DNA of 64,000 nucleotides from a virus. The notes below the pieces were generated by a model. It ran no database searches and was not told the origin of the DNA. It was given only the letters and a program-made list of their open reading frames with translations. Shown here one piece after another: positions 32,268-48,011 of this stretch. Position 1 is the first letter of the stretch, and each line of letters begins with the position of its first letter. Both the position numbers and the translations under genes were made by a program. The stretch covers positions 31,477 to 95,476 of IMG/VR virus record IMGVR_UViG_3300032293_001631; one strand, written 5' to 3'.

Positions 32268-32940
32268 GATAATAGGAGTTGATTTTTCCCTTAATTCCCC
32301 TGGATTTTGTATTTTAGAAAAAGATAAATGTAGATGGATAAGTCTTCATAGGACAACTAATATTATAGATAAGATGTTTAAGAAGGATGGATCTCCTTTT
32401 AACGTCTTAAACGACAATAAATGGGTCGATATAAACATAATTCCTAAGAAGGAATTCAATGGTGAGTATCACGAAAAGGAAAGGGATAAAATAATAAATG
32501 CTATATACTTTTCAGATTTTGCTATTAATCTTCTTGCTCCTTATATTGATGAATCAACCATAGTGGGAATGGAGGGACTTTCTTTCGGATCTTCGGGAAA
32601 CTCTCTAATAGACATATCAATGACTACCGCTCTAATAAGATCAGCAATAGTAAAGAGAATAGATCCTAATAATTTCTTTGTGCTTTCCCCGACTACTGTT
32701 AAAAAGTTTGCTCTGAAAGGAAACTCGAAGAAAGATGAATTATATAATACCTTATTAGAGACAAGAAACGAGGATAATAGATTGGCACCATTGATAAAAG
32801 ATCTAAAAGAATATAAGGATAAATGGATCAAGGGACCAAACAAGGTTGAAACTCCTTGCTCTGATATAATTGACGCAACTTGGATAGCTTTATTCGTAGA
32901 AGAAAATTTAGGGAAACTTTTATCTGGTAAGAAGGTATAA
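32245..32940 (+). CDS. RuvC-like Holliday junction resolvase (RNase H fold)
   Basis: The 231-residue protein shows the RuvC/RNase H acidic pattern. A first strand IIGVDFSLNSPGFCIL carries the catalytic Asp, a second acidic strand VGMEGLSFG the Glu, and a C-terminal helix DIIDATWIAL the final Asp pair. The SLIDISMTTALIRSAI helix and SPTTVKKFALKGNSKKDEL element are also RuvC-like. T4 uses the unrelated endonuclease VII for this job, so this would be a replacement, resolving branched DNA before packaging. ATG 32245 is chosen; a TTG three bases upstream is in the same frame. Confidence 0.75.
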   Translation: MLNLKSDKIIGVDFSLNSPGFCILEKDKCRWISLHRTTNIIDKMFKKDGSPFNVLNDNKWVDINIIPKKEFNGEYHEKERDKIINAIYFSDFAINLLAPYIDESTIVGMEGLSFGSSGNSLIDISMTTALIRSAIVKRIDPNNFFVLSPTTVKKFALKGNSKKDELYNTLLETRNEDNRLAPLIKDLKEYKDKWIKGPNKVETPCSDIIDATWIALFVEENLGKLLSGKKV

Positions 32941-32978
32941 GTATTAAATAAGTAATAATTTAAAATAATTTAAGAATC

Positions 32979-33950: not shown

Positions 33951-33964
33951 AATAATGGATTGTT

Positions 33965-35038: not shown

Positions 35039-35214
35039 AGAAAAATAACAACAAAATAAAATTCCCAATAGAAATCAAGGGAGATCTATCACTCCCAGAA
35101 TTTGAAGTTTCTGAAAACTTTTCTATTACGGAGGTAAAAAAGAAGATCAGCTCAGAAGTAAAAGAGATTAAAAATAACAGGAAGAAAAAATGTCAGAGCA
35201 ACAGCCTAATGTAG
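35035..35214 (+). CDS. Small basic protein between primase and UvsY-like gene
   Basis: A 59-residue lysine-rich protein (KKNNNKIKFPIEIKG, then TEVKKKISSEVKEIKNNRKKK). ATG 35035 overlaps the primase stop (ATGA) and is preferred to the upstream ATG at 35017, which lies deeper in primase. Its end overlaps the next gene by 25 bases. Both overlaps imply translational coupling in a replication operon. No family is recognised; the charge suggests nucleic-acid or acidic-protein contact. Confidence 0.6.
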   Translation: MKKNNNKIKFPIEIKGDLSLPEFEVSENFSITEVKKKISSEVKEIKNNRKKKCQSNSLM

Positions 35215-35654
35215 AGAAGAAGGATTTCGCTAGAGAATTTCAATTAGAAAGGGAAGAGTGGACGGAGAAGATAAGGATCTTGTCCGTAAGAATGAAAAAT
35301 ATAAAAGAGCTTGCTGAGGTTCAGGTTGAATTATATTCTAGCAGACAAATGCTATTAGAAATGTATTCTAAGCTTGGACAAGTTATGGTTAAGCTCAATG
35401 GAAAATATAGAAAGGATAGAGCAGAAAGATTAAAATATTATTCTGAATCAGTTCAAGTAAAGTATGGGGCAAACGAAAAAACCCCACTTATTGAAGGTGA
35501 CCTTTCTGAGTTAAAGGAGAGAATGGATCTGGTAGATGGTCAGATATCTTTCTTTAACGAAACTATGAAGACTGTTGATCATATGTTATATGGGATACGC
35601 CATCGTATTATGTTGGAGGATTACCTAAGGAGTGGAGCGGTCAGAAGGGACTAA
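35190..35654 (+). CDS. Possible UvsY-like recombination mediator
   Basis: The 154-residue protein is charged and almost wholly helical, with no cysteines. Features recalling T4 UvsY (137 residues) are a helix with YSSRQMLLEMYSKLGQVMVKL, a basic RKDRAERLKYYSE segment analogous to the UvsY K-x-R-x-D-Y-Y-S-G element, and a C-terminal helix VDHMLYGIRHRIMLEDYLRSGA resembling the UvsY I-K-x-x-I-x-x-x-x-F-x-x-G end. UvsY loads the UvsX recombinase onto gp32-coated DNA. Location between gp32/primase and UvsW fits. The alignment is by eye and could be coincidental. Confidence 0.42.
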   Translation: MSEQQPNVEKKDFAREFQLEREEWTEKIRILSVRMKNIKELAEVQVELYSSRQMLLEMYSKLGQVMVKLNGKYRKDRAERLKYYSESVQVKYGANEKTPLIEGDLSELKERMDLVDGQISFFNETMKTVDHMLYGIRHRIMLEDYLRSGAVRRD

Positions 35655-35678
35655 ATCTATATTTTACACCGTATAGTA

Positions 35679-35686
35679 GATATATA
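35679..35686 (+). promoter_or_regulatory. GATATATA late-promoter-like box before homing endonuclease
   Basis: Exact GATATATA, 19 bases before the ATG at 35706. It gives the mobile gene its own putative promoter inside a replication operon. Confidence 0.45.
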
Positions 35687-35705
35687 ATCCATAAGATGAG
35701 CTATT

Positions 35706-36413
35706 ATGGATTATTATGTTTACGTTTATCTAGATCCATCAAAACCTGGAAATTATAAATATGGAGATTTTTCTTTCGAGTTTGAGCCATTTTATATAGG
35801 AAAGGGAAGGAATCATAGATACAGAACACATCTCTTAAAAGTAAGAAGAGATAATTATAAAAATCTTCCCAAGTATCATGTTATAAAAAAAATACTAAAC
35901 ATGGGTCTAGAGCCTATAATAATTAAATACAAGGAAGATCTATCAGAAAAAGACTCTTTTTTACTGGAGAAAAATATGATAGAATCCATAGGTAGAAAGG
36001 ACATAGGTAAAGGACCTCTAAGAAATTTGAGCAACGGAGGAGAGGGTAACGGAGAAAGAAAATTTACTGATGAGCATAGGATGAATTTAAGCCTGTCAAG
36101 AAAGGGCAAAAACTCCGATAAACAGATGGAGAATCTTAAAAAAATACATCAAAGAATGATCGGTAATAAAAGAACCCTAGGATTTAAATTTTCTGATGAG
36201 AGTAAGAAAAAATTAGCGGAGTCTCATTATAAGCCAGTTTTACAAATATCAAAAGATGGTGAAATATTAAACGAGTTTAGATCTATAAAAGATGCTGAAT
36301 GCTATATAGGAGTATCTATCAAAAAAGTTCTGAGCGGAAAGGGAAAAACTGCCGGGGGATTTATTTGGAGATATAAAATAATTACTAATAATGTTAAGAT
36401 TTGTAGTAAGTGA
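35706..36413 (+). CDS. GIY-YIG homing endonuclease
   Basis: The 235-residue protein starts with a GIY-YIG variant (YYVYVYLDPS, then EPFYIGKGRNHRYRTH), followed by the conserved Glu in FLLEKNMIESIG. The middle (HRMNLSLSRKGK, SDESKKKLAESH) matches NUMOD3-type linker repeats. The C-terminus (PVLQISKDGEILNEFRSIKDAE, then GKGKTAGGFIWRYK) matches the NUMOD1/IENR1 DNA-binding helix. Such Seg-type free-standing endonucleases cut a related phage genome and spread by repair. It lies between a UvsY-like gene and uvsW, overlapping uvsW by 23 bases. Confidence 0.92.
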   Translation: MDYYVYVYLDPSKPGNYKYGDFSFEFEPFYIGKGRNHRYRTHLLKVRRDNYKNLPKYHVIKKILNMGLEPIIIKYKEDLSEKDSFLLEKNMIESIGRKDIGKGPLRNLSNGGEGNGERKFTDEHRMNLSLSRKGKNSDKQMENLKKIHQRMIGNKRTLGFKFSDESKKKLAESHYKPVLQISKDGEILNEFRSIKDAECYIGVSIKKVLSGKGKTAGGFIWRYKIITNNVKICSK

Positions 36414-37932
36414 AGATAATAATTGGTTAAGTTTAGTAGATTATTCTGAGGATTTTGAGAGAAAACAAATAGACATATCCTTAACTAAAAAAATACATAA
36501 TCATTTTTTCCACCCATTGGTTAAGAAAAAACATTGGGATGGATCAATATGTTTCGTTGATAAAAAATTACCAATCTGGAGAGTTCCAATTGGGCTTTGG
36601 TCTGAAGTCTACCAGATATGCGAAAAATATAAGATAGAGGTAAAAATAGATGGACTAGAAAGACTAATAGATTCATCCTTTACTCTTGAGCACTTTACTG
36701 AATGGTGTAACAATTTTTTTGAAGGTGGGGTCGGTGGAGATCCTAACAAAATGCCGAGGGACTACCAAATAGAAACTGCTTGGAAGATAATCAAGTTTAA
36801 GCTATCTGTTTCTGAAGTTGCTACGAGCTCAGGTAAAACATTAATTGCCTTTATGGTAATGGCATATCTTAAAGAGGTGATGAAGGTTAAGAAATTCTTA
36901 ATGATCGTCCCTAATACCAACTTAGTTATTCAGGGATCTGAAGATTTTGAAGAGTATGGACTAGAAAATCTTGAAGATTGCGAGATACAACAAATACACG
37001 GCGCAAATAAGAAAAAGATATCTGGAGGACTGATGATCGGTACTTACCAATCTTTAGTTAAGATGGATCCGGAGTTTTTTGATGACGTTGAGGCAGTTTT
37101 TGTTGATGAATGTCACCAGGCACAGAGTGCTTCAATTAAAAAAGTTGTAGCCCTATGTAGAGATTCTAAATGGAGATTTGGTCTATCCGGAACATTAGCA
37201 AATAAAAACACCGCGGAGTATTTAACTATACAGCAGTTCCTAGGACCGTTGATAATGGAAATATCTCCTAAATTTCTATTTGATAACAAATATGCTACAC
37301 CAGTTTCTATCAAGATAGTAAAGATGGATTGGATGGATCCTGCTGTCAAAGAAAAGTTATCTTCCTTAAAAGAGAATAAAACTGAAATGGAGGGGAACGA
37401 GATATTTAATTTGGAGAGAAAACTAGTTGTTGGATCAGATAAGAGACTTAACTATATAATAGACTTCGTACTAAAGACATCAAAAAACTCTTTGATTCTT
37501 TTCCAATCTGTTGGAGAGGGATACGGAAAAAAAATATATGATGGGATAAGAGAAAAAACTAACGACCGAGAGGTTTATTATATAGATGGTGATACTGATC
37601 CTGATAAAAGGGATATCTTTACTAAGAGAATGGAGGATGGCACTAATAAAATAATGGTGGCTTCATTCGGTACAATGTCAACTGGTATCTCTGTAAAAAA
37701 CATTCATAACATATTCTTAACAGAATCTTATAAATCCGAAGTTCTTATAAAACAAAGCTTGGGAAGGGGGATGAGATTATTTGAAGGTAAGGAGAAGGTT
37801 AATATAATAGATTTCGTTGATGACTTCTCCTGGGAGGGTAAAGAGAACTATTTAATGAAGCACTCAAAGGAAAGAATTGAAATTTACAAGAAAGAACATT
37901 TCGATTATAAGATATACGAAGTCAAAATTTAA
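36391..37932 (+). CDS. uvsW: UvsW-type SF2 helicase
   Basis: The 513-residue length is close to T4 UvsW (about 503). An N-terminal domain (HNHFFHPLVKKKHWDGSICF) precedes PRDYQIETAW (Q-motif-like) and Walker A ATSSGKT at residues 144-150. Further motifs are VDECH at 238-242 (DECH box), GLSGTLANK (motif III), and motif VI as KQSLGRGMRLFEGK. UvsW unwinds branched intermediates and promotes the switch from origin to recombination-dependent replication. The start lies inside the homing endonuclease gene, so the native upstream region was displaced or coupling is retained. Confidence 0.92.
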   Translation: MLRFVVSEDNNWLSLVDYSEDFERKQIDISLTKKIHNHFFHPLVKKKHWDGSICFVDKKLPIWRVPIGLWSEVYQICEKYKIEVKIDGLERLIDSSFTLEHFTEWCNNFFEGGVGGDPNKMPRDYQIETAWKIIKFKLSVSEVATSSGKTLIAFMVMAYLKEVMKVKKFLMIVPNTNLVIQGSEDFEEYGLENLEDCEIQQIHGANKKKISGGLMIGTYQSLVKMDPEFFDDVEAVFVDECHQAQSASIKKVVALCRDSKWRFGLSGTLANKNTAEYLTIQQFLGPLIMEISPKFLFDNKYATPVSIKIVKMDWMDPAVKEKLSSLKENKTEMEGNEIFNLERKLVVGSDKRLNYIIDFVLKTSKNSLILFQSVGEGYGKKIYDGIREKTNDREVYYIDGDTDPDKRDIFTKRMEDGTNKIMVASFGTMSTGISVKNIHNIFLTESYKSEVLIKQSLGRGMRLFEGKEKVNIIDFVDDFSWEGKENYLMKHSKERIEIYKKEHFDYKIYEVKI

Positions 37933-37939
37933 AGATTAG

Positions 37940-37947
37940 GATATATA
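37940..37947 (+). promoter_or_regulatory. GATATATA late-promoter-like box
   Basis: Exact GATATATA, 21 bases before the ATG at 37969, just after uvsW. It precedes the first gene with the capsid-targeting-like N-terminus. Confidence 0.5.
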
Positions 37948-37968
37948 GAATAGAAATAAGATATTTTA

Positions 37969-38577
37969 ATGTCCAGAATTAAGAATTTTAGCGATTTTTG
38001 TAGATTAAATGAAGCTTCTGGTGATGATCTTTTCTTTAGAAGACATCTAGGAGACAATGCTTCATCTTATAAAGATAGAGCTAAGAACCATTACGAACTT
38101 GGTGATAATCCTACTGTTTTATCAAAGGTTAGCAACTTCTTTCAGAAGATGGAAGATAGAATAAATAGAGCTGCAGATATCGGAAAAATGCAGGTCAGAC
38201 AGAACAGGGCAACAAGAACACACGGAGGTCCTGATACTGGATTTGAAATGTTATTCGGAACCCTTTCAGTTGTTCCTAGTGTTCTTAAAAGAGTTTTTGC
38301 TCCAACTAAATATGAGTTTACAAAGAAAGCTCCTAGTGAAGACACTGTTGATGTTGAATTTATTAGACACACTAACGAGGACTTTACCAAAAACGAACTT
38401 CCTAATATTAAAACCGAAGAACAATTAGCAGATCACATAGGTGATATGTATAGCAGAGGAGAAGTACAAATGGGACAGGTACCTGTTCTAGACGATATTG
38501 CTAAGAATAGAGTTAATCTTTATTATCAGCACCAGGCAAATCCTAATCAGCCTATATTCCAACCAAATAATTTATAA
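37969..38577 (+). CDS. Unknown protein with capsid-targeting-like N-terminus
   Basis: The 202-residue protein begins MSRIKNFSDFCRLNEAS, fitting the window-wide pattern of basic/hydrophobic start, F-x-x-F and then L-N-E near residue 15, a consensus site (L/I-x-E) for the T4 head protease. The rest is a charged, soluble protein with a basic segment at residues 60-85 (RINRAADIGKMQVRQNRATR) and no recognised domain. A GATATATA box precedes it, and the next gene, also tagged, begins two bases after its stop. A packaged internal head protein is the working inference. Confidence 0.6.
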   Translation: MSRIKNFSDFCRLNEASGDDLFFRRHLGDNASSYKDRAKNHYELGDNPTVLSKVSNFFQKMEDRINRAADIGKMQVRQNRATRTHGGPDTGFEMLFGTLSVVPSVLKRVFAPTKYEFTKKAPSEDTVDVEFIRHTNEDFTKNELPNIKTEEQLADHIGDMYSRGEVQMGQVPVLDDIAKNRVNLYYQHQANPNQPIFQPNNL

Positions 38578-38579
38578 AA

Positions 38580-39380
38580 ATGAAAAAATTTTCTTCCGTA
38601 GTAGAAAAAAAGAAACAAGAACTAAATGAAGCGAAACTAGTAAGTGAAAGAAACCTCTATCTAGAATTTGCTAAGAAATATCACAAAAAGCATGGTGTTT
38701 CTGGACCTTTCGATAAAAAATTCCAAGGGGATAAGAAAAAGCAAGAGGCTTATATGGAAGAGCTTGCTAAAGCTTGGGATCAGCACAAGAAAGATAAAGG
38801 AATTAAAAATAAGCCAGCTAACCATAAGTTCGATTTTGCAAAAAAGAGAATGAACGAATCTAAAGCATTAGATATGGCAAGATCTATGGTTGGTGACGGC
38901 GGAGATCCTAATTATCATTTTGTAACTATGTGTGACGACTTTTATTTTGAAAAGGGAGAAGACATGATTAGATACAGCAAAGATATGATGGCATCTCCAA
39001 TAAAAATAAAAACTACTCCGGACTTAGGAGCATACACATTCGGACCATTTGCTAACTTAGAGGAATCTAAAAATTTTGCTGCAAGTATTGAGTTGGATGA
39101 GATAAATGGACCTAGAATGGTTATGATCGAGGACAGAAAAACGGGAGAGGTATATTCCAAGTATCTAACTTGTAAAATGCAACCAGTTTGGAATGAAATC
39201 GAGGAGGAAGAAGAAATTGAAGAGGAAGAAGAGTACGAAGATCCTAATGCTGAGTACACCTACAAAGACGAAGAAGAGGATGACGCTTCGGAAGTAGAGG
39301 ACGAAGATGAAGACGAGGATGAGGATGAAGACGAGGAATATACTGCTACTATCCACCAAGAGGAGGACGAAGAAGAATAA
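38580..39380 (+). CDS. Tagged protein with long acidic tail, possible prohead-core/internal protein
   Basis: The 266-residue protein begins MKKFSSVVEKKKQELNEAKL, with V-V-E and L-N-E as possible head-protease sites. Residues 20-95 are lysine-rich and helical, a central domain follows (about 95-210, including HFVTMCDDFYFEKGEDM). Residues about 212-266 are almost entirely Glu/Asp (EIEEEEEIEEEEEYED to EEDEEE). Strongly acidic segments occur in T4 prohead core and internal proteins such as gp67/gp68. They also occur in DNA-mimic or chaperone-like proteins, so the role is uncertain. It lies directly between other accessory genes. Confidence 0.55.
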   Translation: MKKFSSVVEKKKQELNEAKLVSERNLYLEFAKKYHKKHGVSGPFDKKFQGDKKKQEAYMEELAKAWDQHKKDKGIKNKPANHKFDFAKKRMNESKALDMARSMVGDGGDPNYHFVTMCDDFYFEKGEDMIRYSKDMMASPIKIKTTPDLGAYTFGPFANLEESKNFAASIELDEINGPRMVMIEDRKTGEVYSKYLTCKMQPVWNEIEEEEEIEEEEEYEDPNAEYTYKDEEEDDASEVEDEDEDEDEDEDEEYTATIHQEEDEEE

Positions 39381-39385
39381 AATAT

Positions 39386-39829
39386 ATGTTTAATTCCGGT
39401 GGAAAACAAGCTCTATATCCCGTATTACAACACTATACAGGATTTAAGATATCCTCCATTTTTTTAGATGGGGAATATCTTTCCTTTGTTACTTTCTTGG
39501 GTGAAAGAGGAATTTTGAACGAGGATCCATCGGGGGATTGGAATATAAAAATCGAGGACAAAATAGTATACAGAATTGAGAAAGATATCTTTAATGTATT
39601 AGTAAATCCCGATAAAAGAAATACCCTGGAAGACTACATAGAAATATTAAATAGACTTTGTAGGAAACCAAATGTGAGCCATAGGTCTAAAATACTCTTG
39701 AGTAATATAATTAAATTCTTGGAAGAGTTTATATTAAATTCTGATTTTGTACCACAAAAGAAAATAAGAATTGGTTCTTTCGAGATTTTTAATATACATG
39801 GTAGAAAAATTATTAATAGCTTAAACTAA
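39386..39829 (+). CDS. Unknown 147-residue protein
   Basis: A soluble alpha/beta protein with FKISSIFLDGEYLSFVTFLG near the start and a helical, basic C-terminal half (RKPNVSHRSKILLSNIIKFLEEF). No motif, membrane span or N-terminal tag is recognised. Its TAA overlaps the next ATG by one base, so it is probably co-translated with the ligase-like/nucleotidyltransferase fusion. Confidence 0.55.
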   Translation: MFNSGGKQALYPVLQHYTGFKISSIFLDGEYLSFVTFLGERGILNEDPSGDWNIKIEDKIVYRIEKDIFNVLVNPDKRNTLEDYIEILNRLCRKPNVSHRSKILLSNIIKFLEEFILNSDFVPQKKIRIGSFEIFNIHGRKIINSLN

Positions 39830-41847
39830 TGTCTGGAATAAAATATTTATCGGATATCTACGAAAAGAAAGGTAAATCATTCATTGAAAATCTTTTCAAT
39901 AAAACTGTAATAGTAACCGAAAATCTTGACGGATCTTCATTTTCTTTTGAAAAGGATTTTACCGGTGATAACATATCATTCTATAAGAAGGATCAGGAAA
40001 ATCCTATAACTAGAGTAGATAGGATATTAATGAAGTATTATGAGAAGCCTATAAATTATATAGAATCTCTTCCAGATGAAGTTAAGGCAGAAATACCTAA
40101 GGGATGGAGATTTGGTATGGTTTATTTTCCATCTACTAAGCCAGTTAGAATAGAGTATGACAGAATACCAAAGAATCATTTAATATTGACACATATCGTT
40201 GTTAGAGACGAGTTCGGTGATGTTATTAAGACAATACAAGACAAGGAAGAATTAGATCAGTGGGCACAAAAATTTGAGGTAGAGGGATGTCCAGTAATAT
40301 TCCAAGGAAAACTAAATAGGGATCAGAAGATATCAATAATGGAGTTCCTATCTACGCCTTTAATGGATTTAAAGAGTAGATTTAAAACAGAGAGCTTCAC
40401 TAAACATCTACTATCACTATTAAATAAAGACCTAGAAAGTACAACCCTTGGCAAGGATCTTGTATCCCCTGTTGATTCTATTGTTTTTAGATTCGAAGAT
40501 GAGGATGGTAAAGAAGAGAGCGTCCTCGCTAAAATGGTGGATCCTATATTCTATGAAATAAACAGGGAAAGAAAAGTAACTAAAACTTCTTATTTCCCAA
40601 GTGATGTTTATTCGTTGTGTCTTATAGATGTAATGAATTTCATTCTTGAAAAAGGTGTAGAAAACTTCAATGCAGAAGGTAATGATCCTGAAGAGAGATA
40701 CATTTCTTTTGTTTTTGATGTATTTGTTAATTTCATAAATGAAGAGGGAGAAAAATACATTGGAGCGGATTTTCAAAAGCCAGAGTATTTAAAATCAGAA
40801 GGATTCGATCTTAATAAGGAATTAATCAATAACGAGCAGATTATAGAAATGCTGGAAGATGATGAAGCATATGTTGATATACTTCAGATGATATTGAATT
40901 CTTTTAGAAAACTTAAAAGAAAGCCTCATGGATTTTTTACTGAGGGATTAATTCAGCAATTTAATATGTTAGTTGAGGAAATAGCTGACTATATAAACGC
41001 AAAGAGAAAAAATCTAGTGGAAGAATCTGTCGGAGTTCCTTCTTTTGTTTGGTTTAAGAAAGTTGGTGGAAGATTTAATCCCGTGATTAACGAGGAAGAA
41101 GAAATAGATGATTCTGAATTGGATGAAATATTAGAGGCATCTGATAGCACCTATGATATTTTAAATGAATCTGAATCCCCATCCGAATTAAAAGAGGAAG
41201 AAAAAGAGGAGAAGAAGGAGAACACATCTGAATTTTTCTCATTTAAAGATTTTAAAAAGGTAGTATCTACACATAAAGAAAAAAGAAAAATAAAGATCCT
41301 TAACGAGAACAACCAAAAAGTAAACTTAATTATTGGTAAGTTTCAACCATTTAATAATGGACACTTTAAAATGTGTTCCAGATTAAAGAAAGAAAACAAT
41401 TTACCCGTATTCCTTTGTGTTGTTCACCCTGGTGGTGAACCAAGTCAGAAATACCCCTTTACTGAAGATGTGATAAGAAAATCTATCGGGTCTTTAACGT
41501 CTGAAAATAATAAGCTTTTTGCAGGATATGACATCATACAGTCTGATCTTTTAGAAGATGCTTTAAATTGCGTCGTAAAGCACGCTAATCCTGTTTCTGT
41601 TTGTATAGGAGAAAGAGATTTCCAGAATATGGTTCTACAAAGAGAATGGGTTAGAGATAAGTACGATTTAGAGGGAGGAGATATTGAGATATTTAAAACA
41701 CCTCAATGGGCAGACAATAAAGAGATAAGAAATTATGTAATGAATGGGGATTTTCAACAATTTAAAAACCGAGTCCCTAAATCTATAGCAGTTCTATTTA
41801 ATGAGTTTGTCAGATGTATGAAAGAGTCTGATGAGGAGGATATATAG
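39829..41847 (+). CDS. Fusion: polynucleotide-ligase-like domain plus NMN/cytidylyltransferase-like domain
   Basis: The 672-residue protein joins two nucleotidyltransferase folds. Residues about 20-240 resemble RNA/DNA ligases: motif I as TENLDGSSFSF, a mid-domain RIEYDRIPKNHLILTHI strand pair, and motif V as SVLAKMVDP. The nucleophilic lysine of K-x-D-G is replaced by Asn32. Residues about 250-420 are helical, followed by an acidic linker. Residues about 495-672 resemble NadM/cytidylyltransferases: GKFQPFNNGH (505-512, Asn509 in place of the first H/T of H/T-x-G-H) and a degenerate ADNKEIR near the C-terminus. Both active sites are therefore altered. The linker holds FFSFKDF and ILNEN, reminiscent of the N-terminal tag. 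NAD+ metabolism or a structural/sensor role is possible. Confidence 0.65.
   Translation: MSGIKYLSDIYEKKGKSFIENLFNKTVIVTENLDGSSFSFEKDFTGDNISFYKKDQENPITRVDRILMKYYEKPINYIESLPDEVKAEIPKGWRFGMVYFPSTKPVRIEYDRIPKNHLILTHIVVRDEFGDVIKTIQDKEELDQWAQKFEVEGCPVIFQGKLNRDQKISIMEFLSTPLMDLKSRFKTESFTKHLLSLLNKDLESTTLGKDLVSPVDSIVFRFEDEDGKEESVLAKMVDPIFYEINRERKVTKTSYFPSDVYSLCLIDVMNFILEKGVENFNAEGNDPEERYISFVFDVFVNFINEEGEKYIGADFQKPEYLKSEGFDLNKELINNEQIIEMLEDDEAYVDILQMILNSFRKLKRKPHGFFTEGLIQQFNMLVEEIADYINAKRKNLVEESVGVPSFVWFKKVGGRFNPVINEEEEIDDSELDEILEASDSTYDILNESESPSELKEEEKEEKKENTSEFFSFKDFKKVVSTHKEKRKIKILNENNQKVNLIIGKFQPFNNGHFKMCSRLKKENNLPVFLCVVHPGGEPSQKYPFTEDVIRKSIGSLTSENNKLFAGYDIIQSDLLEDALNCVVKHANPVSVCIGERDFQNMVLQREWVRDKYDLEGGDIEIFKTPQWADNKEIRNYVMNGDFQQFKNRVPKSIAVLFNEFVRCMKESDEEDI
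41839..41846 (+). promoter_or_regulatory. GATATATA late-promoter-like box before the metallopeptidase
   Basis: Exact GATATATA, 18 bases before the ATG at 41865, overlapping the last codons of the preceding gene. Confidence 0.45.
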
Positions 41848-41864
41848 ATTAATTAAATAGTATA

Positions 41865-42722
41865 ATGAAAAGAATATTATCTTTTAGTGACTTCGGTCTT
41901 TTTGAATATCACGGATTTACTTCTTCAAATATAGGTCTATTAAACGAAGCAGTTTACCTAGATCAGTTAAACAAAAGACCACATAATGAGGATGCTCTCA
42001 AAAAAATGAGATCATGTATATTTATGTTGAATGGTACTTATCCTTTCTTTTCTGGGCTACTTTCTAAATTATTGATAAGAGAAAACAAAAGACTTCCTTA
42101 TAGAACAATGGCAACTGACGGCGTTAGTATCCACTACGATCCGGACTATGTTTTATCTAAAAGCGATGACGAAATAATATGGGTAATTGCACATGAGGTT
42201 TTACACAATTCTTTATTCCATTTCTTAAGATGCCCTAAGGATAATGATAAGGCATTAATTTGGAACTTTGCTACAGATTATGCACTTAACCAGCTTTTAA
42301 CCCCTGTTGATGAATCTAGCGGTAAACCTAAACCTGCAGCAAAAGGAGGTATAGGAAAAATGCCAGAGGGATCTTTATATCCAGGATGTGGCGTGGTTCC
42401 TTATGATACAGAATTTGTTAACAGAACAGCGGAATGGATATTCGATAAATTAATTGCAAACGGTTTTAATCCAAATAGAAAAAAAGAGGATGGAACTAAA
42501 ACTCCTCCTCCACCTCCTCCACCTCCGATACCACCTAAAGTTGGCGATATTATATTTGATCCTAATAATGATTCATATGGAATAATTAAATCCATTGATG
42601 AAGCAAATGGGGAGGTCGATTATACGCCTATTCCTAAAAGCAAGGTTCCTGAATATATGAAAAGATTAAGGGCTGGAGAAAATGTTTTAGACGACGATGT
42701 CGAGAAGGAACTAGATTTTTAG
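41865..42722 (+). CDS. Tagged metallopeptidase-like protein, DUF2201/COG3864 N-terminal half
   Basis: The 285-residue protein begins MKRILSFSDFGLFEYHGF (tag with L-F-E site). Its core has a zincin motif H110-E-V-L-H114-N followed by WNFATDYALN (Asp138 as likely third ligand), the hallmark of the metallopeptidase domain usually fused to a VWA domain in COG3864. A run of eight prolines (residues about 211-220) separates the core from a small C-terminal SH3-like region (GDIIFDPNNDSYGIIKSI). The VWA half is encoded by the next gene in another frame, and a MoxR-type ATPase follows, so the three probably act together. The substrate is unknown. Confidence 0.78.
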   Translation: MKRILSFSDFGLFEYHGFTSSNIGLLNEAVYLDQLNKRPHNEDALKKMRSCIFMLNGTYPFFSGLLSKLLIRENKRLPYRTMATDGVSIHYDPDYVLSKSDDEIIWVIAHEVLHNSLFHFLRCPKDNDKALIWNFATDYALNQLLTPVDESSGKPKPAAKGGIGKMPEGSLYPGCGVVPYDTEFVNRTAEWIFDKLIANGFNPNRKKEDGTKTPPPPPPPPIPPKVGDIIFDPNNDSYGIIKSIDEANGEVDYTPIPKSKVPEYMKRLRAGENVLDDDVEKELDF

Positions 42723-42744
42723 AAAAAATTAATATTAAAACAGA

Positions 42745-43713
42745 ATGAAAGCTAGAATAACAGATATTAGAATACAGCAGCCAAAAGAGGAAGGCCAGGG
42801 TGGAAGCGGAAGCGGAAGCGGAGGTGGAGGTGGAATCCCTGAAAATGTTGACCAATGGGTTCCTGAAGACGATATTCCAGAAAGAAGCGACGATGGTACA
42901 ATAGTTGGGGACGATTTTGATATAGAAGGTCCTATAGGGCCACAGTCTGAAAATCCAGGCGCAGTAATGAGAGCGGGAGAGCTTGGCGATCTTGGAGGAA
43001 GACATGGTCTGGATGGAGAAGCTCTTGCTAAAGAATGGGAAGATAAAACAAGAATAGCTAGAAGTACCCCGGGAAAACTTCCTGCTTCTTTAAAGAGAGC
43101 ATTAGATAAACTAAATAGACCTGCAATAGATTGGAAGTCTGAATTAGCTAAGTTTATAGACGAGGCAATATCAAAATCTAAATATACACTACCCGCTAGA
43201 AGATTCCTAGGAACTGGAAAAGCTCAGTATGGGTATAAAAGATATAAAGAGGAATTTGAAAACATAGTTATTGCTATAGATACTTCTGGATCGATAAGCA
43301 AAGAAATGATTGAGCAATTCTTAGGAGAAGTTCGAGGAATAACTCAGGCTTACAACCCTCGAAAAACTGTTATATTATATTGTGACACCCAAGTTTATGC
43401 ACCAGATATATTAGAGCCTGGGGATTCACCAGATTACTCTAAAATAGCTGGAGGTGGAGGAACTAATTTTTGGCCTCCTTTTAAATGGGTACAACAGGAG
43501 CTAATAGATAAAGGTGAGAAACCTACTGTATTCATTTACTTTACTGACGGATTTGCAACTTTCCCTAGTGTGAATGATTATGACATATCAACTTATGATA
43601 ATAGATGTATATGGGTTTTCCTTTCGTTCAATGACGAGCCTTTTGGGACACCACAGCCTTTTGGAGAAAGAATAGATATTATACTTGCCAACAAGGAAGT
43701 AAAAAGAATATAA
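42745..43713 (+). CDS. VWA-domain protein, COG3864 C-terminal half
   Basis: The 322-residue protein has a Gly/Ser-rich N-terminal linker (about residues 19-32), an acidic stretch, then a VWA domain with a complete MIDAS: D179-T-S-G-S183, T240 in GGGGTNFWPPF and D268 in YFTDGFATFP. MIDAS domains bind a divalent metal and a partner's acidic ligand, and VWA proteins of this type partner with MoxR ATPases. It lacks the N-terminal tag carried by both neighbours. It begins 22 bases after the metallopeptidase stop in a different frame, so this is a clean two-gene split of a normally single polypeptide. Confidence 0.85.
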   Translation: MKARITDIRIQQPKEEGQGGSGSGSGGGGGIPENVDQWVPEDDIPERSDDGTIVGDDFDIEGPIGPQSENPGAVMRAGELGDLGGRHGLDGEALAKEWEDKTRIARSTPGKLPASLKRALDKLNRPAIDWKSELAKFIDEAISKSKYTLPARRFLGTGKAQYGYKRYKEEFENIVIAIDTSGSISKEMIEQFLGEVRGITQAYNPRKTVILYCDTQVYAPDILEPGDSPDYSKIAGGGGTNFWPPFKWVQQELIDKGEKPTVFIYFTDGFATFPSVNDYDISTYDNRCIWVFLSFNDEPFGTPQPFGERIDIILANKEVKRI

Positions 43714-43718
43714 AAATA

Positions 43719-43726
43719 GATATATA
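43719..43726 (+). promoter_or_regulatory. GATATATA late-promoter-like box before the MoxR gene
   Basis: Exact GATATATA, 15 bases before the ATG at 43742 in a 28-base intergenic gap. Confidence 0.5.
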
Positions 43727-43741
43727 AAATAAAAACTCGAA

Positions 43742-45346
43742 ATGGGGAAAAGAATTTATAACTTTAATCAATTTGTCAATGAATCTTATGTAAATGAAGG
43801 CTTCTTCTCTGATTTAGGAAGAAAGGTTTCTGCATGGGCTAAGAATCTATACAATGCGGTTAAATCCGGATTAATTAGTATTATATCATCAGGTCCTAAA
43901 CAAGGAACACCTAGGGTATCTCTTTTTGATGATTCTAAAAGCGAATCTATCCTAAATCAAGTTAACAATTTCTATAGAGGCACTGAATATTATAGAATGA
44001 ACAATCTTCAAATGCCTGAAACATTAGAAGAAAGTTATCTTGCAGAAGACGCAGTCCCTTTAGAATATCCAATTGCAGACGATGTCCCTAACTACTCCGA
44101 ACAAGAGATCAAGGATAACATCAAAAGAAATATGAGAGACATATTTAGAGTTGCTGATGAAATGGATGCTGCAAAAGAATCTGGAGCTTCTGAAGACAAG
44201 GTGGATGATATCTATAGGGGAATATTAGACGTTAAACCTATCTTTATATACGGAGCACCTGGTATCGGTAAAACACAGATCGTTGCTCAAGTATGTGATG
44301 AATTAGGTAAAGAGTTATACGGACATAAACTTTCTCTAGTTAATGTTGATGGAGAAAATGCTGAACCGGTTGACTTTGCTGGTGTACCTAGTGTAGTTGA
44401 TTTGGAAGCTCCTTCTAGCAAAAACCCACTAGGGAGGGGCGTTACCAGATCTAATATTAATGCTGATATCCTTCCTTATGACAATGGTAGAAATGGTAAA
44501 GGCGGTATCATCTTTATCGATGAGTTAAACCGAATGCCAGAAGAGGTTATTAAAATATTTATGAAGCTTGCTCAATCAAGAAGAGTTGGTAACAATTATA
44601 AAATTCCTTCTAGATGGTACATCGTTGCAGCAGGTAACAGAAAAGAGGATGATCCTAGAGGAGGTATTAGAGAGCTTGGTACTGCTCTTAGAGACAGATT
44701 CGAGGCAGTTAACTTTGTTCCAACTGTAGAAGGATTTAGAAAATACGTAGAAGGAAGCAGATATAAAGATGTGGTTCTTCCTGAACTATTAGATTTCCTT
44801 GAATTCCAAAGTGAATTCTTCCACAATTTAGATCCAGATTTAAGGAAAACTAAATATCCAACTCCTAGAGCATGGGTAGATGCTTCAAACTCATTAAAAA
44901 GAGCAGTAAGAGAATTAGAGAGTAAGGGAATTACTACGGTACCTGAATCTTTAATCAGAAGAGAGTTTTCTAAAAACGTTGGTAACGATGCAACAGCAGC
45001 ATTCTTAGTATTCTATAACGTTGCTAAGGAAGTACCAGTAAAAGAATTAGATTTAGTTTACACTGATCCTGAAAGAGCTCCTAAAGCAAAACCAGGAAGA
45101 CCAGATTACAATTATGCTCTAGCAGCTGCTATAATTAGAAAGAGTCTTAAAATGAAACTTACATCTAAAGAAGTTTGCAACTTTATGAAATGGTTATCTA
45201 CAAACGTGGAACCAGAAGAGGGAGGAGCTTTCTTATCTTACTTTGTCAACAGCAATATGTACATTACTAAAGACCAAGATTCTGTTGCATGTGTAGGTCC
45301 TTTAGCTGCTAAATGGAAAGAGGATTTGCCTGGTATTAATATCTAA
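43742..45346 (+). CDS. Tagged MoxR-type AAA+ ATPase
   Basis: The 534-residue protein begins MGKRIYNFNQFVNESYVNEG (tag with V-N-E sites), then an amphipathic segment and a 100-residue leader. Its AAA+ core has Walker A GAPGIGKT (171-178), VDGENAEPVDFAGVP, Walker B IIFIDELNRMP (D260-E261), sensor-1 IVAAGNRKEDDPRGG and an arginine-finger ALRDRFE. MoxR ATPases remodel proteins with VWA partners. The metallopeptidase and VWA genes lie directly upstream, giving a complete three-part module. The long N-terminal extension before the AAA+ core is unusual and could include a packaging signal. Confidence 0.9.
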   Translation: MGKRIYNFNQFVNESYVNEGFFSDLGRKVSAWAKNLYNAVKSGLISIISSGPKQGTPRVSLFDDSKSESILNQVNNFYRGTEYYRMNNLQMPETLEESYLAEDAVPLEYPIADDVPNYSEQEIKDNIKRNMRDIFRVADEMDAAKESGASEDKVDDIYRGILDVKPIFIYGAPGIGKTQIVAQVCDELGKELYGHKLSLVNVDGENAEPVDFAGVPSVVDLEAPSSKNPLGRGVTRSNINADILPYDNGRNGKGGIIFIDELNRMPEEVIKIFMKLAQSRRVGNNYKIPSRWYIVAAGNRKEDDPRGGIRELGTALRDRFEAVNFVPTVEGFRKYVEGSRYKDVVLPELLDFLEFQSEFFHNLDPDLRKTKYPTPRAWVDASNSLKRAVRELESKGITTVPESLIRREFSKNVGNDATAAFLVFYNVAKEVPVKELDLVYTDPERAPKAKPGRPDYNYALAAAIIRKSLKMKLTSKEVCNFMKWLSTNVEPEEGGAFLSYFVNSNMYITKDQDSVACVGPLAAKWKEDLPGINI

Positions 45347-45349
45347 TTA

Positions 45350-45622
45350 ATGAAAAAATACAGCGAAATAAAGGAAGGTCATATGTACAAGTATGACCTT
45401 TCTAATAGCAAGAAGCTTTTAGAAGAGGCTATTGAAAAGATAAATGCTGTTAGGGAAGAATTTGCAAAGATGGACGATGTTGATCTAGGCGAGTTAGAAG
45501 AGGGATGGAATCTTATAGATAAATACTATGGAAACGTGGTAAGAGGAGAAATATTTAAAAGAAAAAACAAGAGGTATATTCCTAACACTTCTGCTGTTTT
45601 TCCTAGAAAAGGAGACAATTGA
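45350..45622 (+). CDS. Small unknown protein after MoxR
   Basis: A 90-residue charged helical protein (LLEEAIEKINAVREEFAKM) with a basic C-terminus (FKRKNKRYIPNT). It starts 3 bases after the MoxR stop and its TGA abuts the next gene, so it belongs to the same transcript. The start MKKYSEIKEG loosely resembles the packaging-tag pattern (I-K-E), but the aromatic spacing is off. No domain is recognised. Confidence 0.6.
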   Translation: MKKYSEIKEGHMYKYDLSNSKKLLEEAIEKINAVREEFAKMDDVDLGELEEGWNLIDKYYGNVVRGEIFKRKNKRYIPNTSAVFPRKGDN

Positions 45623-45627
45623 AAATT

Positions 45628-46164
45628 ATGAAACATATTAAACTATTTGAACAGTTCTTATTCGAAGAAGATGGATTTGGAAGAGATTTTTTCTTCAAAA
45701 AGAAGGAAGGTAAAGTTTCCAAGTACTTTTTTAAGATAGAGGGCGAAGAAGAAACTCATGGCTTTATAGTAAATATAGGCAAGCTATCTAGAGAAATCTC
45801 TATAGATGAAGCAGAGAATAGTTACTGTGTTATTTCAGTTGAACCTATAAAAGAGTCTGTTATGGACGACTATTTAGTTAGAGACACTGATTATAAATCC
45901 AGAGAAGATGACGAATTCCCATTGAGTAAATCTGAGTTCATGAGATTCTATAAAATAATGGGAGAGTGTATCAAAGATTATTTACAGAGCAATCCTAAAG
46001 TTTCTAAGATCTATGATGAGATTCCTCTTAATTTAGAGATCGATATGGATGAGTATAAGGATCGAACAGAATCTCTAATGGATCAATGGAGCTACGATAG
46101 ATGGAGCGTACAAGACGGATCATCTGAAAGAACGTTACTTTATAGTAGAAGAGATCATGAATAA
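45628..46164 (+). CDS. Unknown protein with capsid-targeting-like N-terminus
   Basis: The 178-residue protein begins MKHIKLFEQFLFEEDGF, the tag pattern with two L-F-E sites. An in-frame TTG at 45619 overlaps the previous stop (TTGA) and sits behind a GGAG, so a three-residue longer form is possible. ATG is preferred because it gives a tag of the same length as the others. The body is alpha/beta with many acidic residues (GEEETHGFIVNIG, DEYKDRTESLMDQWSYD) and no recognised motif. The 3' end overlaps the next tagged gene by 8 bases. Confidence 0.6.
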   Translation: MKHIKLFEQFLFEEDGFGRDFFFKKKEGKVSKYFFKIEGEEETHGFIVNIGKLSREISIDEAENSYCVISVEPIKESVMDDYLVRDTDYKSREDDEFPLSKSEFMRFYKIMGECIKDYLQSNPKVSKIYDEIPLNLEIDMDEYKDRTESLMDQWSYDRWSVQDGSSERTLLYSRRDHE

Positions 46165-46468
46165 TAAGATTCTTTCATACGAAGAATTTGTAAACGAATC
46201 AAGAATTCCTATTGCATGGGCTAAGCCTTCGCAAACAACAATAAAGGTTCTCTCATTTATAGGCGAGAATGAAAAAGTTACAAAGAGAGAACTAATCGAA
46301 TTCCTAGATAGTATACCAGAGGATGCCTCAGGAAAAAAACCAAGCATGAATTGGGTGAGAGGACAAAAGAAATACATAAAATATAAGGTAGAGGAAGAAG
46401 AAGCCAACTATTTTTCACTAACCACACTAGGAAAAAGAATACTAAAATCAGCTAAAGTTAACGAATAA
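46157..46468 (+). CDS. Small tagged protein, winged-helix-like body
   Basis: The 103-residue protein begins MNNKILSYEEFVNESRIP, a very clear tag (F-V-N-E-S identical to the MoxR protein). The body has an LSFIGENEKVTKRELIEFLDSI helix-turn-helix-like element, WVRGQKKYIKY, and a two-strand wing (YFSLTTLGKRIL), so a DNA-binding winged helix is plausible. Overlap of 8 bases with the preceding gene suggests coupling. Packaged DNA-binding protein is an inference. Confidence 0.6.
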   Translation: MNNKILSYEEFVNESRIPIAWAKPSQTTIKVLSFIGENEKVTKRELIEFLDSIPEDASGKKPSMNWVRGQKKYIKYKVEEEEANYFSLTTLGKRILKSAKVNE

Positions 46469-46535
46469 CCTATCTAAACGGGGTTAAAATGAAACATTTC
46501 TATACATTTGCTGTATAACTATAAAATATTTAACA

Positions 46536-46715
46536 ATGGAAACTTACGAAAAAATCAAAGAATTGGTAGCAAACATGGAAAAAGATATGGATGCTTTCTA
46601 CGCTAAAGGAAACAAATCTGCAGGAACTAGAGTTCGTACAGCTTGTCAAGAGCTTAAGAAATTAGCTCAAGACCTAAGAGTAAATGTACAAGAAACTAAA
46701 AACACTAAAGCTTAA
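46536..46715 (+). CDS. Hc1/histone-H1-like DNA-binding protein
   Basis: A 59-residue frame, ATG 46536 to TAA 46715. It reads METYEKIKELVANMEKDMDAFY, then AKGNKSAGTRVRTACQEL and KKLAQDLRVNVQETKN. This matches the Bacteroidota histone H1-like Hc1 family (short helix, K-G-N-K-A-A-G-T-R-V-R core, L-K-x-L-A-Q-x-I/L-R, V-Q-E-x-K-N end). Host members compact DNA; a phage copy could organise injected or replicating DNA or displace host proteins. The family is typical of Bacteroidota, so it is also host evidence. It is followed 5 bases later by the next gene. Confidence 0.85.
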   Translation: METYEKIKELVANMEKDMDAFYAKGNKSAGTRVRTACQELKKLAQDLRVNVQETKNTKA

Positions 46716-46720
46716 TCTTT

Positions 46721-46951
46721 ATGGGTTATTATATTTGTAAAGTTAGCTTTTTTACTGGCGAGGTTTCTAAAAGTACAGGAAAAGCAAAAGCATCTAAATC
46801 AGAGATCTTAGTTGAAGCTGAGAGTGTTACTGATGCAGAAGCTACCCTTCATAAGCATTTGTCTGGAGACAATGCAACTGCTCATTTAGATTTTGAAGTT
46901 ACTGCGGTAGCTCAATCTAAAATCGAATCAGTAGTACAGATGAGGGGGTAA
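46721..46951 (+). CDS. DUF4494-like small protein
   Basis: The 76-residue protein starts MGYYICKVSFFTGEVSK, continues with SEILVEAESVTDAEATLHKHL and closes with FEVTAVAQSKIESVV. This is the beta-beta-helix-beta pattern of DUF4494 proteins, common in Bacteroidota and their phages (W/Y-F/Y-x-C-K-V start, V-x-A-x-S-x-T-D/E-A-E-A helix, I-x-x-A-x-x-S-E/I end). Function is unknown. It pairs with the Hc1-like gene and ends just before a strong terminator, so the two probably share a transcript. Confidence 0.5.
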   Translation: MGYYICKVSFFTGEVSKSTGKAKASKSEILVEAESVTDAEATLHKHLSGDNATAHLDFEVTAVAQSKIESVVQMRG

Positions 46952-46968
46952 TCAAAATTCTTTTATTT

Positions 46969-47005
46969 AATCCCGATAGATATATAATCTGTCGGGATTT
47001 TTTTT
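46969..47005 (+). terminator. Rho-independent terminator
   Basis: AATCCCGA (46969-46976) pairs perfectly with TCGGGATT (46992-46999). An inner AGAT/ATCT pairing extends the stem, the apical loop is ATATA, and a run of T to 47005 follows. It ends the Hc1-like/DUF4494-like transcript. Confidence 0.88.
46979..46986 (+). promoter_or_regulatory. GATATATA octamer inside terminator loop
   Basis: Exact GATATATA occupies the apical part of the terminator hairpin, 38 bases before the ATG at 47025. It may be a promoter nested in the terminator or simply the loop sequence. Confidence 0.3.
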
Positions 47006-47024
47006 GTCCCGTTATTTAACATAG

Positions 47025-47198
47025 ATGAAAAAAACGAGAGAACATTCCGCAGAAACTAGCTCTTATGAGCCACCTGTTTCTCCTGTGAAAATTCCAGATG
47101 GTGATACAGGATTCAATATGGTTAAAAACAACTATAGAAGATTTATATGGACTTGGAACGAATATATAAAGAAAAAACCAAAATTCCAAAAAACATAA
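47025..47198 (+). CDS. Small basic protein (57 residues)
   Basis: An ATG 47025 to TAA 47198 frame encodes MKKTREHSAETSSYEPPVSP, then VKIPDGDTGFNMVKNNYRRF and a basic aromatic tail (WTWNEYIKKKPKFQKT). It fills an otherwise gene-free interval after the terminator and ends 4 bases before the next start, consistent with a real gene. No family is recognised. Confidence 0.55.
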   Translation: MKKTREHSAETSSYEPPVSPVKIPDGDTGFNMVKNNYRRFIWTWNEYIKKKPKFQKT

Positions 47199-47202
47199 AT
47201 TT

Positions 47203-47544
47203 ATGCCAGCAGTATCTAAAACACAGCAGAGATTAATGGGACAAGCATATGGTGTACGTAAATGGATGGACACTAATGGAAAAGATGGAATAAATCCTGA
47301 TGATATAAAATCCACATACAGGGAAACTATAGTTGATATTGCTAAAAATATGAAGAAGAAATCCCTTAAGGATTTTGCAAGTACTAAGCATAAGAGATTA
47401 CCGGAAGAGATTGGTGAAAACATAAGTACAATAATACCACATCTTAGTCCAGAGTCAAATAAACCAAGAAAAAGTAAATCTAGAAAGATGCAGAATCTTG
47501 CAGACTATAGAGAATTCACTAACAAAAAAAATAATAAAAAATGA
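47203..47544 (+). CDS. DUF3008-like basic protein
   Basis: The 113-residue protein starts MPAVSKTQQRLMGQAYGVRK, matching the M-P-A/S-V/K-S-K-x-Q-Q-R-x-M-G motif of DUF3008-type proteins common in T4-like and marine phages. It has KSLKDFASTKHKRLPEEIG in the middle and a basic C-terminus. The family's function is unknown; small size and charge fit a DNA-associated or virion role. Its end overlaps the next ATG by 4 bases (ATGA). Confidence 0.6.
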   Translation: MPAVSKTQQRLMGQAYGVRKWMDTNGKDGINPDDIKSTYRETIVDIAKNMKKKSLKDFASTKHKRLPEEIGENISTIIPHLSPESNKPRKSKSRKMQNLADYREFTNKKNNKK

Positions 47545-48011
47545 GCGAAGATTGCGGATGTGGAGCAACCACAGATAACATTAGAAATTATGAAACCTAT
47601 TCTACATCTTCTAGATATGAACAGGATCCGTTAGTAGGAAAAAAGGTTTCTCTTATAGATGGTAGAAGCGGTAGGGTTGATGATTCAATCCGAAACAGCG
47701 TAGGCGAGGTTATAGGATATATTATCGAAGGTGAGAGAGGTATGTACAGAGTATTTAAAGATAAAATTGCAGCAGAAGTAGATGAAGGCGGTGGTGCGAT
47801 GGCTTCTTTAGCCGGAACCCCAGGAATGGGAAACGTAGTTCCTCCAGGACCGGGTAGAACTGGATCTGGAGATCAATTTCCAAGCTTAACTGTTGGAACC
47901 CCTGCAGCTAGAAAAAAAAAGAAGAAAGCATCTAAAGAAACTAAAAATCCAATAAGTACTTCTCTTATGGACTTTAGAAGCTTTATGAAATCTAGTAAAT
48001 CCAATCAGTAG
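47541..48011 (+). CDS. Unknown protein with Cys-rich N-terminus and Gly/Pro linker
   Basis: The 156-residue protein begins MSEDCGCGATTDN. An SH3/KOW-like core follows at about residues 32-78 (LVGKKVSLIDGRSGRVDD, then GYIIEGERGMYRVFKDK). Next comes a Gly/Pro-rich segment (SLAGTPGMGNVVPPGPGRTG) and a basic tail with a poly-lysine stretch. A similar A-x-x-x-T-P-G-M-G-x-x-x-P-P segment is recalled from marine T4-like phage proteins of unknown function. It is coupled to the preceding DUF3008-like gene. Confidence 0.55.
   Translation: MSEDCGCGATTDNIRNYETYSTSSRYEQDPLVGKKVSLIDGRSGRVDDSIRNSVGEVIGYIIEGERGMYRVFKDKIAAEVDEGGGAMASLAGTPGMGNVVPPGPGRTGSGDQFPSLTVGTPAARKKKKKASKETKNPISTSLMDFRSFMKSSKSNQ

What the first reader, a model, noticed from the sequence alone, without database searches (positions are those of the whole stretch)
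41865..45346. Phage-borne metallopeptidase + VWA + MoxR AAA+ module, two parts carrying the packaging-like tag
Seen: HEVLH zincin with WNFATDYALN (41865), VWA with complete MIDAS D179/S/S183, T240, D268 (42745), and MoxR ATPase with Walker A/B and arginine finger (43742) in one cluster. Known: COG3864 joins the first two in one polypeptide and pairs with MoxR ATPases; MoxR-VWA systems act as remodelling or conflict modules in bacteria. Here the peptidase and VWA are split, and the peptidase and ATPase have the N-terminal tag plus GATATATA boxes while VWA has neither. Inference: a remodelling/proteolytic machine delivered with the DNA, perhaps acting on host defences or on the virion during ejection. 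This is the best candidate for an undescribed system in the window.
Basis: partly seen in the sequence, partly recalled or inferred. Interest (0 to 1): 0.87.

Follow-up and report, generated by a model that had tools for sequence, protein, structure and literature searches.

The report
Head-tagged phage AAA+/VWA/zinc-peptidase module
Three neighbouring genes of a T4-related large phage encode a split version of an ATP-driven remodelling and protein-cutting module already known from other phages; two of its parts carry what looks like an address label for the inside of the virus head, so it may be shipped into the next host with the DNA, though nobody has shown that.

Summary
Genes 41865-42722 (zincin, DUF2201_N), 42745-43713 (VWA, DUF2201, complete MIDAS) and 43742-45346 (MoxR-like AAA+) form one conserved, strongly selected module. 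It is not undescribed. The same set, with peptidase and VWA fused, is the N4 gp24/gp25 core pair (PHROG 1297/1314, the latter mislabelled 'HNH endonuclease') and was described in jumbo phages in 2021 as a chaperone pair for virion assembly.

New here is the variant. In about 50 related contigs the ATPase, and often the peptidase or fused peptidase-VWA, start with a short tag shared with other genes of these phages. A separate VWA never does (0 of 35). Split and fused forms switch at least four times on the VWA tree. The tag resembles the T4 capsid-targeting sequence. Similar tags occur in the head-gene cluster of a relative, which has a T4-type prohead protease, and on proteins annotated as scaffold and internal capsid proteins in phage PAU. 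GATATATA, upstream of head genes too, behaves as a late promoter.

Best reading: late-made, head-targeted, probably injected remodelling peptidase, with VWA riding along (about 0.5). Packaging and substrate are unproven. Homologous-head phages that lack the module argue against an essential assembly factor.

The parts
41865..42722 (+). zincin metallopeptidase gene (285 aa), split N-terminal half of the COG3864/DUF2201 protein
   Evidence: AlphaFold model mean pLDDT 83 whose nearest PDB folds are selecase minigluzincin and a DNA-protein-crosslink protease, Foldseek probability 0.95-1.0 but E 5e-3 to 2e-2
41865..41909 (+). N-terminal tag MKRILSFSDFGLFEY of the peptidase
   Evidence: matrix score 13.0, 99.9% background 9.6; low-confidence, presumably disordered N-terminus in the model
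42192..42206 (+). HEVLH zinc motif (residues 110-114); further invariant H119 and D138 (D138 codon at 42276)
   Evidence: 31-sequence alignment
42745..43713 (+). VWA (MIDAS) protein gene (322 aa), split C-terminal half; no tag, no box
   Evidence: 0 of 35 separate VWA genes are tagged
43279..43293 (+). MIDAS DxSxS (D179-S183); T240 at 43462, D268 at 43546
   Evidence: invariant in 7 homologues
43742..45346 (+). MoxR-like (helix-2-insert) AAA+ ATPase gene (534 aa) with a ~130-residue N-terminal extension absent from untagged homologues
43742..43789 (+). N-terminal tag MGKRIYNFNQFVNESY of the ATPase
   Evidence: matrix score 25.1; conserved in relatives
44252..44275 (+). Walker A (GAPGIGKT, residues 171-178)
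44519..44524 (+). Walker B acidic pair D260 E261; arginine finger R319 at 44696
41839..41846 (+). GATATATA box before the peptidase gene, probable late promoter
   Evidence: the same box precedes the prohead protease gene and other head-cluster genes of a relative
43719..43726 (+). GATATATA box before the ATPase gene, probable late promoter
   Evidence: 24 of 29 relatives
37969..48011 (+). block around the trio in which many genes carry full or partial versions of the tag (37969, 38580, 41865, 43742, 45619, 46157; candidate internal-head or cargo proteins)
   Evidence: 7 of 15 ORFs above the 95% background, 5 above 99%; the 7 include 47541, a doubtful hit

Best explanation
Shown: the genes encode a MoxR-like AAA+ ATPase, a MIDAS-VWA protein and a zincin, homologous to the fused two-gene phage set typified by N4 gp24/gp25, here in split form. 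Inferred: they are transcribed late; the ATPase and the peptidase carry a propeptide analogous to the T4 capsid-targeting sequence (hydrophobic-x-E followed by S, A, G, Y or N) that directs them into the prohead core and is trimmed by the phage's T4 gp21-type (S77) protease. VWA has no tag because it was the C-terminal half of one polypeptide, and enters, if it does, bound to the peptidase/ATPase. In the next cell the complex would act early: VWA holds a target through its metal site, the ATPase ring remodels it, and the zincin cuts it. The target is most likely a host protein or complex (defence or takeover), less likely the phage's own head or ejection proteins. Steps rated separately: families and homology 0.97; recurrent split 0.95; tag is a head-targeting signal 0.75; packaged 0.6; host-directed action after injection 0.5.
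For: Family and motif tests. The tag is conserved on the ATPase and on the peptidase or fused protein and absent from separate VWA: above the 99% background 33/64 ATPases, 14/34 separate peptidases, 5/25 fused, 0/35 VWA, with a matrix trained on other genes; spacing variants of the tag are missed, so these are lower limits for the tagged ones. Fused homologue LR756500 starts with MKYIKSYENFIFEN. Split/fused needs at least 4-5 changes on the VWA tree. Relatives carry a T4-type prohead protease and gp23-type capsid protein, and the head cluster of one (G002) has tag-like N-termini and the box. In phage PAU, homologous capsid, a run of head-cluster proteins starts MKTLxxLYEA/MKTISKLYEAKLNEA, including those annotated scaffold and internal capsid. 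T4 precedent: a 10-residue N-terminal tag suffices for packaging and delivery (PMC9026906). MoxR homologues were reported in virion preparations of phAPEC6 (PMC7247149) and apparently of DC4 (PMC10638138). PAU, PTm1, MaF61 and MA9V-1 share the capsid lineage but lack the module, so it is not needed to build such heads. Some genomes carry two complete modules, as might be expected for host-directed parts.
Against: No proteomics of this phage or of any relative bearing the tagged module. Untagged homologues occur in other phages and were seen in virion preparations, so the tag is not the only route or those detections were carry-over (thymidylate synthase and a PhoH-like protein were detected too). 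Peptidase-VWA partners were not detected in those virions. A tag-like stretch also lies in the first 40 residues (downstream of the called start) of an adenylate kinase ORF (54893), a metabolic enzyme, which could be cargo or could mean the tag has another role. In GAP32 and phAPEC6 the pair lies beside virion genes, which fits assembly as well. Tag cleavage was not observed.
Confidence: 0.5

Rival explanations
1. Virion-assembly chaperone/protease: MoxR and VWA remodel head or tail proteins during assembly and the zincin processes them, as proposed for group 2.2 jumbo phages by analogy with the MoxR-VWA pair of Acidianus two-tailed virus. The tag would then place the enzyme in the prohead core to work there, not to be injected.
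For: Published proposal (PMC7824862); module beside virion genes in GAP32 and phAPEC6; late-type promoter; tag points to the prohead core.
Against: Phages with homologous capsid and, where annotated, T4-type scaffold or protease genes (PAU, PTm1, MaF61, MA9V-1) lack the module; in N4 the pair lies among deaminase, rII-like, helicase and polymerase genes, not in the structural cluster.
Confidence: 0.27
2. Cytoplasmic late or middle function unrelated to the head (for example maturation of a phage or host metalloenzyme, as for CbbQ/NorQ/RavA-type MoxR systems); the N-terminal motif localises proteins elsewhere, for example to a membrane or a replication compartment.
For: MoxR-VWA pairs mostly mature metal enzymes (general knowledge; RavA-ViaA papers listed); N4 gp24/25 sit with replication and metabolism genes; tag-like stretch on an adenylate kinase ORF.
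Against: Tag shared with head-cluster proteins and resembling the T4 CTS; late-type box shared with head genes.
Confidence: 0.2
3. The repeated N-terminal motif is not a signal but descent or chance similarity of AT-rich, lysine-rich starts.
For: Short motif; compositional bias of a 34% GC genome.
Against: Unrelated proteins share it and its position is fixed at the N-terminus; 99.9% background is 9.6 bits while many tags score 20-28; conserved in the same orthologues over 50-78% identity; separate VWA genes never have it (0/35).
Confidence: 0.03

Closest known systems
Enterobacteria phage N4 gp24 (ATPase) / gp25 (peptidase-VWA), PHROG 1297 / PHROG 1314
   Same: Homologous ATPase and peptidase-VWA in adjacent genes; core to N4-like phages (PMC4193335; N4 map)
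   Different: Fused peptidase-VWA; N4 gp24 is short (about 350 aa), with no room for the ~130-residue extension; placed with non-structural genes; function unknown
MoxR + metallopeptidase-VWA pair of group 2.2 jumbo phages (Iyer et al. 2021, PMC7824862)
   Same: Same domains and pairing; proposed chaperone/co-chaperone with peptidase
   Different: Fused, untagged in GAP32 and phAPEC6; here split, tagged and with late-type boxes
Bacterial COG3864 / DUF2201 proteins beside MoxR-family ATPases
   Same: Peptidase and VWA domains match the two Pfam halves
   Different: One polypeptide in the family model; function unknown; no papers on COG3864 in the library
T4 capsid-targeting sequence of IPI-III and Alt (MKTYQEFIAEA type, from general knowledge)
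   Same: About 10-16 residue N-terminal segment, aromatic residue and hydrophobic-x-E, in a phage group with gp21-type protease and gp23-type capsid
   Different: Different consensus; packaging and cleavage not tested here; present on a much larger set of proteins
RavA-ViaA, CbbQ-CbbO, NorQ-NorD; Acidianus two-tailed virus MoxR-VWA pair
   Same: AAA+ of the helix-2-insert clade plus MIDAS VWA partner
   Different: No zincin partner in these systems (general knowledge and PMC7824862)
MoxR-vWA ternary conflict systems (VMAP, iSTAND and others; PMC7159879)
   Same: MoxR + VWA core
   Different: Match to the Pfam MoxR domain of a ternary system (bpMoxR) is below its cut-off; no PADLOC match for VWA or peptidase; no VMAP, STAND or effector domains

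Membership tests
COG3864 / DUF2201 peptidase-VWA | DUF2201_N zincin with HExxH...H...NxAxDY and DUF2201 VWA | tested here: met
   Both Pfam families above gathering; residues conserved in 31 homologues
COG3864 / DUF2201 peptidase-VWA | both domains in one polypeptide | tested here: not met
   Two ORFs, 22 bp apart, split conserved in 30 of 54 scored VWA sequences, at least 4 changes on the tree; a split relative by descent
MoxR-like AAA+ (helix-2-insert clade) | AAA+ with Walker A/B, sensor 1, Arg finger, helix-2 insert | tested here: met
   AAA_5 over cut-off; invariant motifs; best profile match to solved chains is midasin; model has beta strands at 215-222 and 232-238 where the insert is expected; Foldseek matches include RuvB, MCM, dynein and a Cytophaga ATPase (2r44)
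MoxR-like AAA+ (helix-2-insert clade) | classical MoxR model (AAA_3) over its cut-off | tested here: not met
   AAA_3 16.6 bits, cut-off 27; a cyanophage MoxR was placed in the CGN subfamily by others (PMC9964418)
phage pair PHROG 1297 + 1314 (N4 gp24/gp25) | adjacent ATPase and peptidase-VWA genes | tested here: met
   PHROG hits E 4.5e-44, 3.9e-41, 2.2e-23; peptidase-VWA is two genes here
T4-type capsid-targeting sequence | short N-terminal segment with hydrophobic-x-E site, shared by proteins of the head interior | tested here: met
   'head interior' rests on PAU annotation and on gene position in a relative
T4-type capsid-targeting sequence | gp21-type (S77) prohead protease in the same phage | tested here: inconclusive
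   found in relatives G002 and G003, not in the 95-kb record, which is a fragment
T4-type capsid-targeting sequence | tag causes packaging and is cleaved | not testable with these tools
   needs virion mass spectrometry or a fusion experiment
MoxR-vWA ternary conflict system | third conserved component (VMAP, iSTAND, FtsH or beta-propeller) with effector domains | tested here: not met
   No such domain in trio or in the neighbours scanned with Pfam

The most novel reading that the evidence does not exclude
A whole ATP-dependent remodelling/proteolytic machine (AAA+ ring, MIDAS adaptor, zincin) is packaged in phage heads through T4-like targeting propeptides and injected to dismantle a host complex before any phage gene is expressed. 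The untagged N4-type pair would do the same job from newly made protein.
Probability: 0.38. Interest if true: 0.82.

Novelty: new variant of a known kind. Interest (0 to 1): 0.57.

Why it matters
The phage MoxR/peptidase-VWA pair is core in N4-like phages and common in jumbo phages, yet has no known function and a wrong database name. A conserved head-type tag on two of its parts makes a definite prediction about place and time of action (inside the virion, early in infection) that virion proteomics can settle. It also suggests that a T4-like cargo-targeting system is widespread in large phages related to those of Bacteroidota, which would allow their injected proteins to be listed from sequence alone.

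Tried and rejected
Single-sequence PDB searches gave nothing useful. PADLOC hits on the ATPase are generic P-loop matches. NCBIfam VapB-like hit on VWA is far below cut-off, chance. PHROG 1314 name 'HNH endonuclease' rejected: the family matches peptidase and VWA halves. Frameshift or intron as cause of the split rejected: intergenic gaps differ between relatives, the separate peptidase has its own C-terminal beta domain and VWA its own conserved start. A first attempt at the tag matrix failed on a script error. An ADP-ribosyltransferase guess for tagged gene 56909 (FRGTS motif) found no family support. No cultured phage with a tagged module was found among the phage records examined, so published proteomes could only be consulted for distant untagged homologues.
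Full report
Observation. Pfam identifies a DUF2201_N zincin, a DUF2201 VWA that also keeps the tail of DUF2201_N, and an AAA_5 ATPase; PHROGs place peptidase and VWA on consecutive parts of one family (PHROG 1314, positions 9-162 and 146-390 of 394) and the ATPase in PHROG 1297. So the two small genes are the halves of one ancestral protein. dN/dS against a relative is 0.09-0.16.

What it belongs to. The window is part of a 95,476-bp virus record. Relatives carry a gp23-type capsid protein and an S77 prohead protease. The capsid protein of relative G002 is closest to LR756500, Lak megaphages and phages of Tenacibaculum, PAU, Chryseobacterium and Flavobacterium, so this is a T4-related large phage, probably of a Bacteroidota host (inference). 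Homologues of the trio occur in hundreds of phage records: 432 for VWA and 737 for the ATPase at E<=1e-3. They include N4-like phages, where N4 gp24/gp25 are two of 14 core genes, without known function (PMC4193335; N4 map), jumbo phages GAP32 and phAPEC6, cyanophage S-TIM5 and Bacillus phage G. The pairing was described in 2021 and proposed to act in virion assembly (PMC7824862). The system is therefore known in kind.

What is different here. A scan of viral contigs with the ATPase alignment gave 80 loci. Profile searches of their ORFs show peptidase and VWA as separate genes in one large set and fused in another. On the VWA tree the two states need 5 changes, at least 4 forced by supported branches. 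Gene order also differs (peptidase-VWA-ATPase, as here, or ATPase-peptidase-VWA), some loci have tandem VWA or tandem ATPase genes, and some contigs carry two complete modules.

The tag. A matrix built from 11 tags of other genes, not of the trio, was compared with 5,000 random internal segments: above the 99% level lie 33 of 64 ATPases, 14 of 34 separate peptidases, 5 of 25 fused proteins and 0 of 35 separate VWA proteins. The matrix has no gaps, so spacing variants such as MRRLRNFKEYQLLKEN are missed. In LR756500 the fused protein starts with MKYIKSYENFIFEN and two downstream genes with MKYIQTYKDFLLEA and MKYIQTYKDFLIES. Homologues in GAP32, phAPEC6, S-TIM5 and phage G have no such start. 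Hence the tag follows the N-terminal half; after each split VWA has none. That suggests that VWA either travels by binding its partner or is not packaged; these data do not decide.

What the tag may do. In relative G002 the gene cluster with protease and capsid protein contains several proteins with tag-like starts ending in FES, NEG or LES, and GATATATA precedes the protease gene and four neighbours (families). In PAU, a run of head-cluster proteins starts with MKTLxxLYE or MKTISKLYEAKLNEA, including the annotated scaffold and two proteins annotated 'internal capsid protein'; the third protein so annotated, gp70, does not. The annotation is the depositors'. T4 internal proteins enter the head through a 10-residue N-terminal sequence, with targeting mainly at residues 4 and 7 and processing at residues 8 and 10 (PMC9026906). 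The parallel is close but is an inference. The box GATATATA is biased to the + strand, 14 to 1 in the window, and in relatives precedes the ATPase (24/29) and the peptidase (13/28) but never VWA (0/29), which fits a late promoter.

Function. Evidence on place of action from elsewhere is mixed. MoxR homologues were reported in virion preparations of phAPEC6 (gp265c, 6 peptides) and apparently of the Staphylococcus jumbo phage DC4, without their peptidase neighbours; metabolic enzymes were detected in phAPEC6 too, so carry-over is possible, and the DC4 proteins were not compared here by sequence. In N4 the pair lies among non-structural genes. PAU, PTm1, MaF61 and MA9V-1 have the same kind of capsid but no module, so it is not essential to assemble such a head. 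I therefore favour a head-targeted, injected, host-directed remodelling peptidase (0.5) over an assembly enzyme (0.27) or an unrelated cytoplasmic role (0.2).

Structures. AlphaFold models of peptidase (pLDDT 83) and ATPase (pLDDT 83) have low-confidence N-termini covering the tags. Foldseek relates the peptidase to selecase and to a crosslink-repair protease at weak E-values but high probability, and the ATPase to RuvB, MCM, dynein and a Cytophaga ATPase. The ATPase profile finds midasin, itself an AAA+/MIDAS protein, as best solved relative.

Verdict. Observation confirmed; system known; split, tagged, late-type variant apparently new; packaging and target open.

Noticed in passing
L032 and L052 (same contig 3300042863_002243), also L040/L051, L031/L053, L028/L056, L030/L065: Several related phage contigs carry two modules about 25 kb apart (peptidase-VWA-ATPase and ATPase-peptidase-VWA order), ATPase tagged in both. 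In this record the second would lie beyond the end of the contig.
   Followed up: partly
window 39829-41847: 672-aa protein with a ligase-like ENLDGS motif (asparagine where ligases have the catalytic lysine) and a C-terminal nicotinamide-nucleotide-adenylyltransferase-like domain; its start is partly tag-like.
   Followed up: partly
window 54893-55582: Adenylate kinase (Pfam ADK E=1.8e-33) with a tag-like stretch near its N-terminus, perhaps preceded by a wrong start; a nucleotide kinase as possible head cargo would be odd.
   Followed up: partly
window 56909-57394: Strongly tagged 161-aa protein with box and an FRGTS motif reminiscent of ADP-ribosyltransferases (T4 Alt is one); no Pfam match.
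   Followed up: partly
PHROG 1314 and RefSeq phage records: Fused peptidase-VWA proteins are widely named 'HNH endonuclease' in phage records, apparently by transfer from PHROG 1314; the sequences examined show a zincin and a VWA instead.
   Followed up: yes
L125 (phage PAU 95000-144000): About ten head-cluster proteins share N-terminal MKTLxxLYE(A/S) tags, suggesting a PAU-specific capsid-targeting sequence.
   Followed up: partly
L028 3973-5967; L082 and L099: Tandem duplicated VWA genes in one phage and tandem tagged ATPase genes in others.
   Followed up: no
L022/L023 (G002 30238-39163) and L001: A run of adjacent genes that look like glycosyltransferases and nucleotide-sugar enzymes (judged from N-terminal sequence only) near the capsid genes.
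   Followed up: no
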